Shown here piece after piece: positions 32,806-38,014 of a stretch of DNA of 46,721 bases (positions are counted from its first letter, which is position 1; every line of letters begins with the position of its first letter). Origin of the DNA: an uncultured Mucilaginibacter sp. (GTDB lineage: Bacteria; Bacteroidota; Bacteroidia; Sphingobacteriales; Sphingobacteriaceae); contig NZ_CALMAT010000118.1 of NCBI RefSeq assembly GCF_937859865.1, forward strand, positions 71,557 through 118,277. Reading direction: 5' to 3'. The notes beneath the pieces were generated by a model. That model was not told the DNA's origin. It ran no database searches and saw only the letters and a program-made list of their open reading frames with translations. The position numbers and the translations under genes were made by a program.

Positions 32806-33435
32806 TTACTTAGCTAATGCTTCCTCCAAAGTTTTAACAGAACTTGCAGTCAACAAAAGCCTACCTGCGTTCAACACATCATAAGTGTTTAACTGATCGG
32901 CCGTGATTACTTTTGCTTTTTTGATATTTCTGCTTGATAAATAAATGTTGTTATTTGCTGCCGGAAGAACCAATAAGGTTTTCTCATTGGTAAAATTTAA
33001 ACCAGCTACTAAATTGATGTAGTTTTTGGTTTTGATTGAATCAAAGCTGAAATCTTCCAACACCACGATGTGGTTGTCTTGTGCTTTGTATGACAAAGCT
33101 GATTTACGGGCCAGTGATTTCAATTTCTTATTCAGCTTAAAACTGTAATCACGAGGTTGCGGACCAAAAACACGGCCACCACCATTAAACAAAGGGGACT
33201 TAACACTACCGGCACGGGCGCCGCCAGTTCCTTTTTGTTTGTGCAATTTGCGGGTAGAACCAGCAATTTCGTTACGCTGTTTAGATTTATGTGTTCCCTG
33301 GCGTTGGTTGGCCAAGTATTGTTTTACATCTAAATAGATGGCATGATCGTTAGGTTCAACGCCAAATACCGAATCAGGAAGCTGCACCCGGGCACCAGTT
33401 TCTTGTCCTGAAACATTTAATACAACTACTTCCAT
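32806..33435 (-). CDS. rplD: 50S ribosomal protein L4
   Basis: The 209-residue protein has an extended tunnel loop with [40 protein letters not shown]. In E. coli L4 represses its own operon; whether that holds here is unknown. Its start overlaps the rplC stop by one base. Confidence 0.98.
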
Positions 33436-34052
33436 TATTTGTCGATAATTACAAATGAACCCTTAGCGCCAGGTATAGAACCTTTTACCACCAATAAATT
33501 CTGCTCGTTATAAACCTTTAATACTTCCAGATTTTGAACTTTTACCCGGCTGTTACCGGTTTGGCCGGCCATACGCATGCCTTTAAATACACGTGACGGC
33601 CATGAAGACGCACCCAAAGAACCAGGCGCCCTTAAACGGTTGTGCTGGCCGTGTGTTGCCATACCTACACCACCGAAACCATGACGCTTTACAACCCCTT
33701 GAAAACCTTTACCTTTGGATGTTCCTACAACATCTACAAAGTCTCCGGCTGCAAAAAGCTCAACAGTAACGGTGTCGCCTAATGATTTTTGATCTTGGAA
33801 AGTTGTAAATTCAACCAATTTTTTCTTTGGCGTGGTTCCTGCCTTAGCAAAGTGGCCTTTTAACGGGCCGGAAGTATTTTTTTCCTTCTTTTCGTCATAT
33901 GCCAACTGAACAGCAGCATATCCGTCTGTTTCTACAGACTTAACCTGTGTAACTACACAGGGGCCAGCTTCGATTACGGTACAAGGAATATTTTTCCCTG
34001 TTTCATCGAAAATGCTGGTCATTCCTACTTTTTTACCAATAATTCCTGACAT
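33435..34052 (-). CDS. rplC: 50S ribosomal protein L3
   Basis: The start at 34052 gives 205 residues beginning [19 protein letters not shown], the family start; an upstream in-frame ATG at 34157 would extend into the promoter and leader. The [46 protein letters not shown] region is conserved. It is the first gene of the S10 operon here, since rpsJ lies more than 3 kb away and ends with its own terminator. Confidence 0.97.
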
Positions 34053-34079
34053 TTTCTTAATTAATTTGTAACTGTCCAT

Positions 34080-34097
34080 CGAAGCAGTAGGGCTTCG
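34080..34097. promoter_or_regulatory. Small hairpin in the rplC leader
   Basis: CGAAGC and GCTTCG pair over a six-base loop in the 70-base untranslated leader of the S10 operon. It could be a ribosomal-protein feedback site; nothing more can be said from sequence. Confidence 0.35.
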
Positions 34098-34127
34098 TTC
34101 AAGACATTCTTCCCCTTTTCGGGACGG

Positions 34128-34158
34128 CAAAGATAGGAATGTTTGATTAATTATCAAA
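34128..34158 (-). promoter_or_regulatory. Promoter of the S10-spc-alpha operon
   Basis: The minus strand has TTTG (34155-34158), 19 bases, then TATCTTTG (34128-34135): an exact fit to the Bacteroidetes -33/-7 consensus. Transcription should start near 34121, leaving about 70 bases of leader before rplC. The rest of the 335-base gap up to yoeB holds the repeat pair described below. Confidence 0.8.
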
Positions 34159-34257
34159 TAGTTACGGGAAAATATTTTTTTTAAAAAAGCAGTAATTAAT
34201 TGCTCATCTTTTTGACTGCTTTTAAAGCTAATTTTTACTGAAATTAAGATAAGTTCA

Positions 34258-34284
34258 ATGCTTCTTTTATCAGTATAAATTTAG
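34258..34284 (+). repeat. Dispersed element, copy 21
   Basis: It reads ATGCTTCTTTTA, TCAG, TATAAATTTAGTG. It forms an inverted pair with copy 22 across 30 bases, between yoeB and the S10 promoter. Confidence 0.8.
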
Positions 34285-34314
34285 TGACTGTAAATTTCAA
34301 TTTCTGTTAAACGG

Positions 34315-34344
34315 ACACCAAATTTTGCATGGTAAAAGAAGCAT
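34315..34344 (-). repeat. Dispersed element, copy 22
   Basis: The minus strand reads ATGCTTCTTTTA, CCATGC, AAAATTTGGTGT. It is the inverted partner of copy 21 and may act in ending the yefM-yoeB transcript. Confidence 0.8.
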
Positions 34345-34388
34345 CAGCTTAAATTTTACAGCTTTTATTAAGAAAACCCAACCTTTTG

Positions 34389-34646
34389 TTATTGATAATG
34401 ATAACGGCATTGCAATATATGCAACCGGTGTTCCTTTACCTGATAAATCAACCGGTGTTCTCCGGTAATCCGCCGGCTCCAGCAACCACTGTAATTTCCT
34501 TTTAATGGTTCAGGTTTTCCTATTCCTTTAAAAGCATTTCGTAAAGTATCTTTTATCAGTTCATTAATTCGTTGCAGTACCTTTTTATCGGTTTGTTGCC
34601 AGTACAAATAATCTTCCCACGATTGTGTTTGCCAAACCAATTCCAT
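34389..34646 (-). CDS. yoeB: Toxin YoeB (RelE-fold mRNA interferase)
   Basis: The 85-residue YoeB toxin cleaves mRNA on the ribosome. The catalytic residues occupy the same numbers as in E. coli YoeB: E46, R65, H83 and Y84 (C-terminal RYHYQ). The core WSRRITGEHRLIYQV is highly conserved. It starts one base after the antitoxin stop. It appears intact and active. Confidence 0.95.
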   Translation of the reverse strand: MELVWQTQSWEDYLYWQQTDKKVLQRINELIKDTLRNAFKGIGKPEPLKGNYSGCWSRRITGEHRLIYQVKEHRLHILQCRYHYQ

Positions 34647-34647
34647 T

Positions 34648-34902
34648 TCAATCTTCTATCAATTTGTGCTGCTGAAATTCTCCTTTATTCATTTCATCAA
34701 TAGCTTGTTGCAAACGTTTTCTATTTGGTTCACTTTTAATTAAATGCATCGTTTCTAACAACGAATTGTATTCTTCTAAAGACATCACGACCACATTCTT
34801 CCCTTTGCTTCGCGATACAATTACGATTTCGGCATTATCATTTACTTTATCTAAGTTTTTGGCCAGATTCTGACGGAAATCTGTAAAATTTAAAACATCC
34901 AT
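34648..34902 (-). CDS. yefM: Antitoxin YefM (Phd/YefM family)
   Basis: The 84-residue antitoxin neutralises YoeB and represses the operon. The Phd/YefM N-terminal DNA-binding fold is clear (LNFTDFRQNLAKNLDKVNDNAEIVIVSRSKGKNVVVMSLEEYNSLLETMHLI), followed by the toxin-wrapping tail. A palindrome covering the presumed transcription start lies five bases upstream of its ATG. Confidence 0.95.
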   Translation of the reverse strand: MDVLNFTDFRQNLAKNLDKVNDNAEIVIVSRSKGKNVVVMSLEEYNSLLETMHLIKSEPNRKRLQQAIDEMNKGEFQQHKLIED

Positions 34903-34906
34903 ACAC

Positions 34907-34922
34907 GTACTTATTTAAGTAC
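34907..34922. promoter_or_regulatory. Operator palindrome of yefM-yoeB
   Basis: GTACTTA and TAAGTAC flank two bases, five bases from the yefM ATG and abutting a TATTTTTG -7 box. The GTAC ends resemble the TGTACA elements bound by E. coli YefM. It is the likely autorepression site. Confidence 0.65.
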
Positions 34923-34929
34923 AAAAATA
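34922..34929 (-). promoter_or_regulatory. -7 box of yefM-yoeB
   Basis: The minus strand reads TATTTTTG (TAnnTTTG). No matching -33 TTTG was found; the promoter lies in the 37-base gap after the tyrA stop. Confidence 0.45.
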
Positions 34930-34939
34930 AGGAATAATA

Positions 34940-36199
34940 TCAATCGCCCATTAATCTTTTTATCAATTCAGAACTTTGCTGGCGGCCATGCTCCAACCGG
35001 TCTTTAAAAAAATTTTGGGTATGGTTGAAATGCAACTTATAACCATCCATATCGCTGTAGTTTACTATAGCCGACCAATCACGGACAGCAGAATGAAACT
35101 CCAGGTCATCGCCGCGGATGCTTTTATCGTACAAAGCCGTTTCGATAGATTCTTCCAGCAATGCTTCGTTTTTGAATAAATATTCGGCTATGCCTAAACG
35201 CAAACGGAAAGGCGGAGTTTGGCAGATCAAATTATCGTAAGGGTTTACCTTTAGCTTGTTCCAAGCATCTACCATGCTTAACAAACTTAAATGGGAGTTG
35301 GGTTTCCGAAGATGGGAATTGACCGACAACGAAAATTCTTTCATAATGCTGTCGTCTAGTAAAATGGGTGTCCGGCTTTCGTGGAAAACAAAATCCCGTG
35401 CTTCGTACAATCGTCGGCGCAACTCCTTTTCATCTTCCTGAATCATCAGCTTAAACAATTCGGATTCAGAAACTGCATATTGCTTTACCTGCTGCTTGGC
35501 GTAAGGGTTTAAAATGGCCGCACCGGCATATACGTGCGCTTTGTAACTGAAAATTCGCAGCATAATTAGGATTTTTACATTGTCAATCCCGCCAATGTAA
35601 GCTGCGTTTTCCCAGGGATAAAAACCTGCCGTGGCACAAGCTGTTCCCATACTTTCAAAACCAACATGTGTAACAGCTTGTGTATCAGCAACAATTTTAT
35701 CATGCTGATGATAGTCCTCCATTTCTACCAAGTTTACTTCCAAAAGCAGCAGCACATCTACCAACGTTTGATATGCTTTTTGATCACAGCGGTGTGGGAT
35801 CACGACCAGCTTTTGTCCCTTCGGCATAAAACCTGGCCCATGCAAAGCGTGAATGGTAATGATTTGGGCATCGGAAGGCAAAAACTCTTCAAAAGCAGCA
35901 ATTTCCGGATGCTTTACCGAAGTTTGGCCGGCCACAATTGCACCTGGTTTTGCATAAGGCGCGTAACGCGCCACCACTTCTTTGATTTTTTCTGCTTCAA
36001 CCGAAAAGATCAGCAAATCACTTTTTTGTGCGGTTTCTCTTCCATCTGCAAGCACTTCAATTTGGTATGGGTTCAGTTCTTCGCACAAACGTTCGAAATT
36101 GTGTGGCAAATCGCTTCCGCAAACTTCCAAGCCTTGCTGCGCAAAAGCTTTTGCATAAAGCCTGCCCATATCGCCTAAACCTATAAATCCAATAACCAT
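34940..36199 (-). CDS. Prephenate dehydrogenase, fungal TYR1 type
   Basis: The 419-residue enzyme oxidises prephenate to 4-hydroxyphenylpyruvate for tyrosine. The NAD(P) fold begins VIGFIGLGDMGRLYAKAF. It shares long segments with yeast Tyr1p as I recall it: FSVEAEKIKEVVARY, GQTSVKHPEIAAFEEFLP, HALHGPGF, HDKIVADTQAVTHVGFESMG, AGAAILNPYAKQQVKQYAVS followed by ESELFKLMIQ, NSHLSLLSMVDAW, NPYDNLICQTPPFRLRLGIAEY and DDLEFHSAVRDWS. This is a different branch from the usual bacterial TyrA, which is shorter and lacks the long helical C-half. It is encoded in the gap between the str and S10 operons. Confidence 0.88.
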   Translation of the reverse strand: MVIGFIGLGDMGRLYAKAFAQQGLEVCGSDLPHNFERLCEELNPYQIEVLADGRETAQKSDLLIFSVEAEKIKEVVARYAPYAKPGAIVAGQTSVKHPEIAAFEEFLPSDAQIITIHALHGPGFMPKGQKLVVIPHRCDQKAYQTLVDVLLLLEVNLVEMEDYHQHDKIVADTQAVTHVGFESMGTACATAGFYPWENAAYIGGIDNVKILIMLRIFSYKAHVYAGAAILNPYAKQQVKQYAVSESELFKLMIQEDEKELRRRLYEARDFVFHESRTPILLDDSIMKEFSLSVNSHLRKPNSHLSLLSMVDAWNKLKVNPYDNLICQTPPFRLRLGIAEYLFKNEALLEESIETALYDKSIRGDDLEFHSAVRDWSAIVNYSDMDGYKLHFNHTQNFFKDRLEHGRQQSSELIKRLMGD

Positions 36200-36316
36200 G
36201 CGGCTAAGTTAATTACGTTTAAGTTATTTTAATGCTGATGTTCATATTCGTTTGCATCGAATACTATATTTTTGTTATAATGGCATTGTTTAATTTGAAA
36301 ATGTTTACCCAAACCA

Positions 36317-36346
36317 AAGCTTCTTTTATGCACCTAAAAACAGCAT
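36317..36346 (+). repeat. Dispersed element, copy 23 (holds the start codon of the next gene)
   Basis: It reads AAGCTTCTTTTA, TGCACC, TAAAAACAGCAT. Left and right halves carry the two alternative flanks (CTTC type and ACAG type) and so form an imperfect palindrome. The ATG at 36328 is inside it. Confidence 0.75.
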
Positions 36347-37068
36347 TCTGTTTATTGCAGGTAATTCTATTATCTACTATAATTTCAACTGGTTACGCGC
36401 AGGATTCTGTAAAAACGAAACCTCGCGCAACAACGGCAGCAAAACCGGTTGTAGGGAAAACGCTTCCGCCAAAAACCAATCCTACAAAAACTTATCCGGT
36501 AAATACCGGTCAAACTGCGCAACCACGGCCAACTGTTGCTGCGCCAATTGCAGTTAGCCCGGATAAAAGTTTAGGCGGACAGTATCAGTTTATTTTGGGC
36601 AAAACTTACAGTTACCAGCATCCAATGATTGATGCTTTTTATAAAAGTATGCAAGATAGTTTACGTACTTTACACAGTAGTTTAACTGCTATTAAAACCA
36701 AATTAGCAACACAAACCAAAACCCTGGCAGCTTTGCAAACTGATGTAAACAGCAAAGAACAAAGCTTGAATGAAACCAATGCGCAGGTAAACAACATCAG
36801 TTTTTTGGGGATGCCTGTTGCCAAAACCACTTACAACACCATGATGTGGGGTTTGGTGATTGCGTTGGGTTTAATCGCAGCAACGGTAATTTTCTTGTCG
36901 GCCAGTGCGAGGCGCGAAGCACATTACCGCACTAAATTGTACAACGAACTGGAGGAAGAATACAAAGGCTACAAAACCAAAGCCAACGACAAGGAGAAAA
37001 AACTATCGCGCGATTTGCAGACTGTTAGAAATAAATTGGAAGAAATTACCGGCAACCCTGAATATTAG
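36328..37068 (+). CDS. Membrane-anchored periplasmic coiled-coil protein, unknown function
   Basis: The ATG at 36328 gives 246 residues with a good signal peptide, MHLKTAFCLLQVILLSTIIS to GYAQ. Earlier in-frame ATGs (36232, 36280, 36301) would give a longer and less usual leader. A Pro/Thr/Lys-rich linker (about 27-75) leads to a segment with heptads (SLRTLHSSLTAIKTKLATQTKTLAALQTDVNSKEQSLNETNAQ). One transmembrane helix (MMWGLVIALGLIAATVIFLS) and a charged cytoplasmic coiled coil (ELEEEYKGYKTKANDKEKKLSRDLQTVRNKLEEI) follow. I do not recognise the family. It is the only plus-strand gene between rpsL and rplQ. Confidence 0.75.
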   Translation: MHLKTAFCLLQVILLSTIISTGYAQDSVKTKPRATTAAKPVVGKTLPPKTNPTKTYPVNTGQTAQPRPTVAAPIAVSPDKSLGGQYQFILGKTYSYQHPMIDAFYKSMQDSLRTLHSSLTAIKTKLATQTKTLAALQTDVNSKEQSLNETNAQVNNISFLGMPVAKTTYNTMMWGLVIALGLIAATVIFLSASARREAHYRTKLYNELEEEYKGYKTKANDKEKKLSRDLQTVRNKLEEITGNPEY

Positions 37069-37070
37069 GG

Positions 37071-37102
37071 ATGCTTCTTTTATCGGGTAAAAATTGGTGT
37101 TA
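37071..37102 (+). repeat. Dispersed element, copy 24 (full-length)
   Basis: It reads ATGCTTCTTTTA, TCGGG, TAAAAATTGGTGTTAA: full consensus, beginning two bases after the stop of the coiled-coil gene. Confidence 0.92.
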
Positions 37103-37114
37103 AAAAGATGATTC

Positions 37115-37379
37115 CTACCGGTTGTCCCAGAAAAATAGAACCTCTATTGACGATTCTTTAACCTGATAAAACAAAGAACAGTTTTTGGGTACGAAGCCTT
37201 TACGCACATCAGAATTATTAATTACGGCTTCAAAACTTTGAAATTAAAGTTAGGGTTTTAAGAACGCGTTTTTCAAATTTTTGAACTTCTCTTTGTCCAA
37301 ACCTATCCTCTTATTTGTTTTTAAGAGCTTCGAAAGAAACAATTGCTTCCTGAGAAAAGACAATTGTATATTCCTTCAT
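37115..37379 (-). pseudogene. Decayed ParE/RelE-type toxin
   Basis: Reading from the ATG at 37379 gives MKEYTIVFSQEAIVSFEALK, then an in-frame TAA after KNK, then EDRFGQREVQKFEKRVLKTL...ISKF, then a frameshift, then DVRKGFVPKNCSLFYQVKES and VLFFWDNR before a TAG at 37115. The whole matches a RelE/ParE-fold toxin of about 90 residues with at least one nonsense mutation and one frameshift. The start overlaps the antitoxin stop by four bases (ATGA), as in intact modules. Confidence 0.8.
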
Positions 37380-37581
37380 TTCGAAATAGATAAACTTTTC
37401 TTGAATTCTTTCAACGAAACCGTTCGACCTGCTTTGATGTCTTCCTGGCCTCTTTTAATTCCTTTTAAAACATGGATAGGTAAAACATCTTCTTTTTTTC
37501 GTAGGCAATATTTAACGATTTGAAAAAATCCAACACGATTTTTTCTTGTTCTGCTGTTGGATGTACAAGGTAAGTTTCCAT
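37376..37581 (-). pseudogene. Decayed cognate antitoxin (DUF2683-like)
   Basis: The ATG at 37581 gives METYLVHPTAEQEKIVLDFF and KSLNIAYEKK, then the frame breaks in a run of seven A. Restoring one A gives EDVLPIHVLKGIKRGQEDIK and AGRTVSLKEFKKSLSISK to a TGA at 37376. This is the small antitoxin type that precedes RelE/ParE toxins in Bacteroidetes. A TATATTTG box (37587-37594) remains just upstream. Confidence 0.75.
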
Positions 37582-37586
37582 TTAAA

Positions 37587-37594
37587 CAAATATA
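37587..37594 (-). promoter_or_regulatory. -7 box of the decayed toxin-antitoxin pair
   Basis: The minus strand reads TATATTTG (TAnnTTTG), five bases before the antitoxin ATG. It may still be functional although the genes are broken. Confidence 0.4.
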
Positions 37595-37616
37595 TCAAAA
37601 TCACGATACAAAGTAA

Positions 37617-37648
37617 ATACTTCTTTTATCACGTAAAAATTGGTGTTA
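37617..37648 (+). repeat. Dispersed element, copy 25 (full-length)
   Basis: It reads ATACTTCTTTTA, TCACG, TAAAAATTGGTGTTA. It is paired with copy 26 on the other side of the rpsJ terminator. Confidence 0.9.
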
Positions 37649-37652
37649 AAAC

Positions 37653-37688
37653 AAAAAAGATCGTTCTTTTTCAAAACGATCTTTTTTA
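37653..37688. terminator. Terminator of the str operon, after rpsJ
   Basis: AAAAAAGATCGTT and AACGATCTTTTTT form a 13-bp stem with T tracts on both strands, 20 bases past the rpsJ stop. It separates rpsJ from rplC transcription. Confidence 0.9.
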
Positions 37689-37708
37689 TTTATGGATAAA
37701 AGAAGTAC
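37682..37708 (-). repeat. Dispersed element, copy 26 (abuts rpsJ stop)
   Basis: The minus strand reads GTACTTCTTTTA, TCCA, TAAATAAAAAA. It directly follows the rpsJ stop codon and merges with the terminator. Confidence 0.75.
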
Positions 37709-38014
37709 TTACACTTTGATTTCTACTTCAACGCCGCTTGGCAATTCTAACTTCATCAAAGCATCTACAGTTTTTGAGTTGGAGCTGTAAATGTCAAGCA
37801 AGCGTTTGTAAGAACACAATTGAAATTGCTCTCTTGCTTTTTTGTTTACGTGCGGTGAACGCAAAACGGTAAAAATTCTTTTTTCAGTTGGTAAAGGAAG
37901 CGGTCCGCTAACTACAGCGCCGGTTGGCTTTACAGTTTTAACGATTTTCTCGGCAGATTTATCTACCAAATTGTAATCGTAAGATTTTAATTTGATTCTG
38001 ATTCTTTGGCTCAT
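37709..38014 (-). CDS. rpsJ: 30S ribosomal protein S10
   Basis: The 101-residue S10 (NusE) has the signature [30 protein letters not shown]. It is usually the first gene of the S10 operon with rplC next; here it is the last gene of the str operon and is followed by a terminator. It starts 91 bases after fusA. Confidence 0.98.

What the first reader, a model, noticed from the sequence alone, without database searches (positions are those of the whole stretch)
34940..36199. Fungal-type prephenate dehydrogenase in a bacterium
Long shared segments (HDKIVADTQAVTH, NSHLSLL, LNPYAKQQ, ESELFKLMI, DDLEF) and the whole 419-residue architecture match the fungal TYR1 branch as I recall it, not the common bacterial TyrA. 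This suggests ancient exchange between the lineages, in either direction. No other aromatic-pathway gene is next to it.
Basis: established knowledge. Interest (0 to 1): 0.6.

Follow-up and report, generated by a model that had tools for sequence, protein, structure and literature searches.

The report
Yeast-type tyrosine enzyme in bacteria
This bacterium, and many of its relatives in one family, appear to make tyrosine with a dehydrogenase that looks like the yeast enzyme instead of the usual bacterial one; no sampled family genome carried both, which points to an old exchange of a housekeeping gene between fungi and bacteria whose direction is still open.

Summary
The ORF is real (34940-36199, minus strand, 419 aa). 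A family member against E. coli TyrA gives 23% over 255 residues. With outgroups, the bacterial family plus yeast form one clade (100/100), apart from canonical TyrA of the same bacterial family. It is the only TyrA found in the genome: the other PF02153 match is ProC. In its family (Sphingobacteriaceae) 114 of 201 sampled genomes have this type, 63 the canonical one, 24 neither, none both. In samples of the class and phylum every strong match was a family member. In 9 of 21 loci it sits between rpsJ and rplC, in a break of the S10 operon. Three relatives keep the flanking genes there without it; two of these have no TyrA detected. Catalytic residues are conserved, so it is most likely the sole prephenate dehydrogenase, in place of canonical TyrA. 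Direction is unresolved: one recalled fungal sequence, other phyla not searchable, bacterial monophyly not rejected (p-AU 0.105).

The parts
34940..36199 (-). fungal-type (TYR1-like) prephenate dehydrogenase, 419 aa, ATG start
   Evidence: ORF; 47% to recalled yeast Tyr1 over 425 columns; relatives in 114 of 201 family genomes
35714..36199 (-). residues 1-162: Rossmann NAD(P)-binding domain, GLGDMG motif, Ser94 and His117
   Evidence: Pfam NAD-binding models; secondary structure of the model; residues mapped on E. coli S176 and H197
35363..35713 (-). residues 163-279: TyrA helical domain with His178, Arg215, Tyr219, Tyr224
   Evidence: structural match to solved TyrA enzymes up to residue 257-279; residue mapping
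34943..35362 (-). residues 280-419: C-terminal helical extension, shared with recalled yeast Tyr1 (NSHLSLL, DDLEF)
   Evidence: alignment; no Pfam match for residues 275-419
36232..37068 (+). divergent neighbour 'nbr1', no Pfam family over cut-off (coiled coil and one membrane helix by my own reading), near this tyrA in 16 of 21 loci
37709..38014 (-). rpsJ, one side of the break in the S10 operon
   Evidence: landmark
33435..34052 (-). rplC (the listed ORF starts at 34157; the 205-aa start seen in relatives lies inside), other side of the break

Best explanation
The gene encodes the only TyrA found in this Sphingobacteriaceae bacterium, a fungal-TYR1-type prephenate dehydrogenase. Inferred mechanism: NAD(P)-dependent oxidative decarboxylation of prephenate to 4-hydroxyphenylpyruvate, then transamination to tyrosine. 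The bacterial family and the fungal lineage share this gene through an old interdomain transfer (direction open). In many family members it stands in place of canonical TyrA; genomes without it carry canonical TyrA or have no TyrA detected. Shown here: sequence type, single copy in the genome, absence of both types together in the sample, conserved catalytic residues, shared locus in many relatives. Inferred: enzymatic activity, substrate and cofactor preference, the transfer.
For: Full-length 47% identity to recalled yeast Tyr1. Clade with yeast 100/100, canonical TyrA apart at 99/98. No second TyrA in the genome: the other PF02153 match is ProC (219 bits against a cut-off of 197) beside argB, and the protein finds no other place better than E 0.2. 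114 of 201 genomes fungal type, 63 of 201 canonical, 0 both. Equivalents of E. coli S176, H197, H257, R294 and Y303 in 46 of 46 members read. TyrA fold over residues 1-279. The genome has prephenate dehydratase and a DAHP synthase with a chorismate mutase domain, so prephenate can be made. In PMC5681985 (passages) the characterised fungal enzymes are cited as preferring prephenate.
Against: Yeast Tyr1 was recalled, not fetched. The window protein is below the Pfam PDH_N cut-off (23 against 26.5 bits; among 13 genomes with this type 7 show a match over the cut-off) and NCBIfam TyrA models are far below theirs (85 against 464 bits). Structural Z to other Rossmann dehydrogenases (PYCR1, hydroxyisobutyrate dehydrogenase, KARI) is about 20, close to TyrA's 22, so the TyrA assignment rests on aligned length and rmsd. 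The E. coli Q298 position is Tyr in 46 of 46 members and Asn in recalled yeast. PMC1173090 (passages) doubts the old assignment of the yeast enzyme as prephenate-specific and reports a prediction as arogenate type. No expression or activity data.
Confidence: 0.82

Rival explanations
1. Transfer went from a fungus (or related eukaryote) into an ancestor of most of the Sphingobacteriaceae.
For: Within Bacteroidota the type was seen only in this family: all 11 matches among 395 class genomes and all 9 strong matches among 395 phylum genomes (4 further matches at 52-68 bits fall outside the clade). The lineages that branch first in the family tree (G008; G005 with G419) are canonical (a quick tree), and two of these three have rpsJ next to rplC. 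That Tyr1 is general in fungi is recalled.
Against: No fungal diversity sampled; with one fungal row no tree here could show bacteria inside fungi, and the outgroup tree put yeast inside the bacteria.
Confidence: 0.4
2. Transfer went from a Sphingobacteriaceae-like bacterium into an ancestor of fungi.
For: In the outgroup-rooted tree (295 columns) yeast sits inside the bacterial family, beside L109, at 98/87.
Against: Bacterial monophyly without yeast is not rejected (p-AU 0.105). The yeast branch is long, the tool warns of long branches, and in the full-length tree yeast attaches elsewhere, between g13 and the rest.
Confidence: 0.27
3. Both fungi and this family received the gene from an unsampled third lineage.
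For: Other phyla could not be surveyed. The one genome-contig scan used variable peptides and returned two close relatives only, so it says little about distant ones.
Against: No full-length relative in plasmids (only Ilyobacter, residues 1-121), phages or three viral scans; these are weak tests of other phyla.
Confidence: 0.25
4. The enzyme prefers arogenate and is not a prephenate dehydrogenase in vivo.
For: Tyr where Gln or Asn marks the prephenate clade; passage on yeast in PMC1173090.
Against: No acidic residue there, the mark of arogenate enzymes in PMC5681985 (passages).
Confidence: 0.15
5. Fungal DNA contamination or a misassembly.
For: The assembly is a 177-contig draft.
Against: Open ORF between ribosomal genes on a 118-kb contig; same type in 114 of 201 family genomes, some listed with a single contig, often at the same place.
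Confidence: 0.01

Closest known systems
Fungal Tyr1, S. cerevisiae TYR1 (listed as EC 1.3.1.13 in PMC8241756, one passage)
   Same: Full-length colinear match, 47% identity, same C-terminal extension with NSHLSLL and DDLEF, same catalytic residues (yeast sequence recalled).
   Different: The five bacterial members aligned lack the yeast N-terminal 13 residues and most of its C-terminal tail; Tyr instead of Asn at the E. coli Q298 position.
Canonical Bacteroidota TyrA (about 280 aa, PF02153)
   Same: Same enzyme superfamily and, by inference, the same pathway step.
   Different: Separate clade at 99/98; 97-141 bits to PF02153 in 63 genomes against at most 33 for the fungal type; no C-terminal extension; Ser at the Q298 position in 8 of 8 aligned.
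Bifunctional E. coli TyrA (chorismate mutase/prephenate dehydrogenase)
   Same: Catalytic residues; local spacing before Arg294 is like this type and unlike canonical Bacteroidota TyrA, which lacks four residues there.
   Different: 23% over 255 residues (member L012); fused chorismate mutase domain; no such C-terminal extension.

Membership tests
Fungal-type TYR1 prephenate dehydrogenase | end-to-end similarity to fungal Tyr1 including the C-terminal extension | tested here: met
   380 bits, 425 columns, extension aligned; the reference sequence is recalled
Fungal-type TYR1 prephenate dehydrogenase | groups with a fungal sequence against other TyrA in a tree | tested here: met
   100/100 with one recalled fungal row, 22 of 44 family sequences and 21 other TyrA rows
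Fungal-type TYR1 prephenate dehydrogenase | placed within or beside the diversity of database fungal sequences | not testable with these tools
   no eukaryote collection
TyrA superfamily | catalytic Ser, His, His, Arg | tested here: met
   S94, H117, H178, R215 in 46 of 46 members (44, L105 and L108)
TyrA superfamily | Rossmann plus helical dimerisation domain fold | tested here: met
   model pLDDT 88.2; Z 20.6-22.4 to nine solved TyrA entries, rmsd 2.3-3.7 over 241-271 residues; other Rossmann enzymes reach Z 20.5 but over about 165 residues or with rmsd near 5
Pfam PDH_N (PF02153) | score over the curated cut-off | tested here: not met
   window protein 23 bits against 26.5; 7 of 13 genomes with this type have a match over it
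NCBIfam prephenate dehydrogenase equivalogs | score over the curated cut-off | tested here: not met
   best 85 bits against 464
Prephenate-specific TyrA | Gln or Asn at the position-222 equivalent | tested here: inconclusive
   non-acidic, but Tyr in 46 of 46
Prephenate dehydrogenase | enzymatic activity on prephenate with NAD(P) | not tested
   needs purified enzyme

The most novel reading that the evidence does not exclude
An essential housekeeping enzyme of a bacterial family was displaced by a eukaryote-type one taken from fungi, landing in a ribosomal-protein operon, after which fungal-type and bacterial TyrA were swapped repeatedly within the family without lasting coexistence; the C-terminal half may be an internal duplicate of the TyrA helical domain.
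Probability: 0.3. Interest if true: 0.7.

Novelty: new member of a known kind. Interest (0 to 1): 0.5.

Why it matters
To my knowledge (recalled, not searched) full replacement of a core biosynthetic enzyme by transfer between fungi and bacteria is seldom documented. Here it can be followed across hundreds of genomes, with apparent losses, sites that kept the flanking genes, and one possible regain of canonical TyrA, so the direction and cost of such swaps become testable. The window protein is below the cut-offs of Pfam PDH_N and of the NCBIfam TyrA models, so automatic pathway calls may wrongly predict tyrosine auxotrophy for such bacteria.

Tried and rejected
Contamination was rejected on the conserved locus. 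A second TyrA in the genome was looked for and not found (the other PF02153 match is ProC). Carriage by viruses or plasmids: no relative in phages or in two viral scans; a third viral scan gave one match of 67 residues at 32%, in the N-terminal part, not followed; plasmids gave only Ilyobacter, residues 1-121. By sequence, the best solved structures are ordinary TyrA and other Rossmann enzymes; none named as fungal Tyr1 was listed.

Internal duplication of the helical domain: profile comparison of residues 163-275 with 276-419 gave score 24.6 over 22 columns, above 60 of 60 column shuffles (maximum 21.7), but the Rossmann part against the same C-terminal part gave 25.4 over 7 columns, so it is inconclusive. 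The C-terminal part folded alone reached pLDDT 50 and was not searched. In the viral structure library the 7 matches at E 0.001 or better are general NAD(P) enzymes.

Gain and loss on a species tree: a quick tree from fusA and ribosomal proteins needed 7 changes of the fungal-type label (starred branches force 6); 39 of 44 genomes had enough data, five fungal-type ones fell out, and many rows are under half filled. I use it only to say that the label is patchy and that the lineages branching first are canonical. The gene tree groups g18 with g6/g11/g20 (97/91), unlike that species tree, which hints at transfer within the family; not followed.

Rows dropped: the 44 family sequences passed a filter asking for the strings DTQA and DNVK; L105 and L108 fell out and were checked apart. 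Only loci that the searches had fetched were read, not all members listed. The outgroup tree used 22 of the 44, the AF2 alignment 42 sequences.

Regulation: no Rfam match at gathering score, no tRNA; promoter-like and terminator-like sites are 16 against 10.7 (sd 3.5) and 4 against 4.0 in shuffles.

Full report
What is there. The window belongs to a 3.98-Mb, 177-contig genome (G000). The one genome-contig scan returned two relatives, Mucilaginibacter arboris (87%) and a Sphingobacteriaceae MAG titled as from a lichen (86%). The 419-aa ORF at 34940-36199 on the minus strand is open and holds all five quoted segments. Pfam sees NAD-binding models and a sub-threshold PDH_N (23 against 26.5 bits); NCBIfam's best TyrA model scores 85 bits against a cut-off of 464.

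Fungal type. Match: 380 bits, 199/425 identical, over the whole length. Two checks speak against a memory bent towards the window, the only family sequence I had seen when typing. First, ranked by bits against yeast, the window protein is 36th of 44 family members. Second, at the 20 columns where the window departs from the 80% consensus of relatives outside its genus, yeast equals the consensus in 9, the window in 4, neither in 7. A literature search for its peptides found no paper. The sequence still needs replacing by the database entry.

Tree. With 22 of the 44 family sequences, yeast, 15 canonical Bacteroidota TyrA and 6 other TyrA (E. coli, Ilyobacter, the 4 weak phylum matches), on 295 columns, family plus yeast is one clade at 100/100 and canonical TyrA another at 99/98. 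The tool warns that several long branches meet, among them the one to the family. Yeast falls inside the bacterial family there (beside L109, 98/87), but bacterial monophyly is not rejected (p-AU 0.105). In the full-length tree without outgroup (44 family rows and yeast) yeast attaches between genus g13 and all others. So the type is settled as far as one fungal row can settle it; the direction is not.

Sole TyrA. In the own genome the second PF02153 match (21.7 bits) lies in an ORF that NCBIfam names ProC (219 bits, cut-off 197), beside argB. The protein itself finds its own place and one row at E 0.2. The genome has prephenate dehydratase, and next to it a DAHP synthase with a chorismate mutase domain; EPSP synthase and chorismate synthase follow in the same-genus genome G001, where they were scanned. 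No tyrA was seen in this cluster in 16 genomes of both types.

Distribution. Family sample: 114 of 201 fungal type, 63 of 201 canonical at 97-141 bits and E below 1e-15, overlap 0, neither 24 (the genomes are related, so the Fisher value there is no true probability). Order sample: 242 of 400, every listed match in this family; one genome, G1127, shows two matches, not looked into. Class sample: 11 of 395, all of them among the 15 family members listed; no match in any other family. Phylum sample: 13 of 395, of which 9 family members at 790-811 bits and 4 others at 52-68 bits that fall outside the clade. Other phyla could not be sampled. Thirteen genomes with no match of this type were searched again with PF02153: none had a match of canonical strength (best 25 bits, 27 with neighbouring stretches). 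Both of these tested, G006 and G011, also lack prephenate dehydratase, as expected of auxotrophs.

Place. In 9 of 21 loci read (window included) the gene lies between rpsJ and rplC with both in view; in 7 one of the two is in view; in 5 neither, with about 7 kb of flank. The neighbour nbr1 is in view in 16 of 21. Outside the family rpsJ is next to rplC in 5 of 6 genomes tested; inside, in 3 of 17 tested genomes without this tyrA (G419, G008, G011), rplC being beyond the 1.5-kb flank in the others. So the junction is broken in most family genomes, with or without this gene. In three g13 genomes without the gene (G549, G343, G401) nbr1 and the two genes before rplC are still there, as in the g13 loci that have it, which suggests loss. 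G549 has a canonical TyrA that groups with that of a g18 genome (97/91) and not with the main family group, perhaps a regain; G343 and G401 have none detected.

How it works. Equivalents of E. coli S176, H197, H257, R294 and Y303 are S94, H117, H178, R215 and Y224, kept in 46 of 46 members and in recalled yeast; roles of these positions in the H. influenzae enzyme are given in PMC2954222 (passages). The model (pLDDT 88.2) matches solved TyrA with Z 20.6-22.4 over up to residue 279; other Rossmann dehydrogenases come close in Z (about 20) with shorter or looser alignments. The equivalent of E. coli Q298, which I take for the position that PMC5681985 (passages) links to substrate choice, is Tyr219 in 46 of 46 and Asn in yeast. 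It is not acidic, which fits prephenate, but Tyr is not among the residues named in the passages. The most likely function is prephenate dehydrogenase; substrate and cofactor preference are inference.

Known or new. PMC1173090 (passages) describes yeast TyrA as a cohesive cluster, and PMC5681985 (passages) puts fungal TyrA in a clade with some archaea, gamma-proteobacteria and chloroflexi; neither mentions a Bacteroidota member of it in the passages seen. Nine searches of the held library listed no paper that, by title, abstract start or the passages looked at, reports a fungal-type TyrA in Bacteroidota; most subscription journals are not held, and two papers that I wanted were not. I file it as a new member of a known kind: a known enzyme type in an unexpected host lineage.

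Noticed in passing
34389-34902: A YefM-YoeB type toxin-antitoxin pair (PF06769 139 bits, PF02604 67 bits) sits between this gene and rplC on the minus strand.
   Followed up: partly
33435-38014: The S10 ribosomal operon is split between rpsJ and rplC; the junction is broken in 14 of 17 family genomes tested that lack this tyrA as well, so it may be a recurrent insertion site.
   Followed up: partly
36232-37068: nbr1, a protein without a Pfam family over cut-off, is near the fungal-type tyrA in 16 of 21 loci and remains at the site in three genomes that lack the tyrA.
   Followed up: partly
L171, L172, L173: Genomes G549, G343 and G401 keep nbr1 and the two genes before rplC but lack this tyrA; G549 has a canonical TyrA elsewhere, the other two none detected.
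   Followed up: yes
G1127: One genome of the order sample shows two matches to the fungal-type profile; a second copy or a split gene.
   Followed up: no
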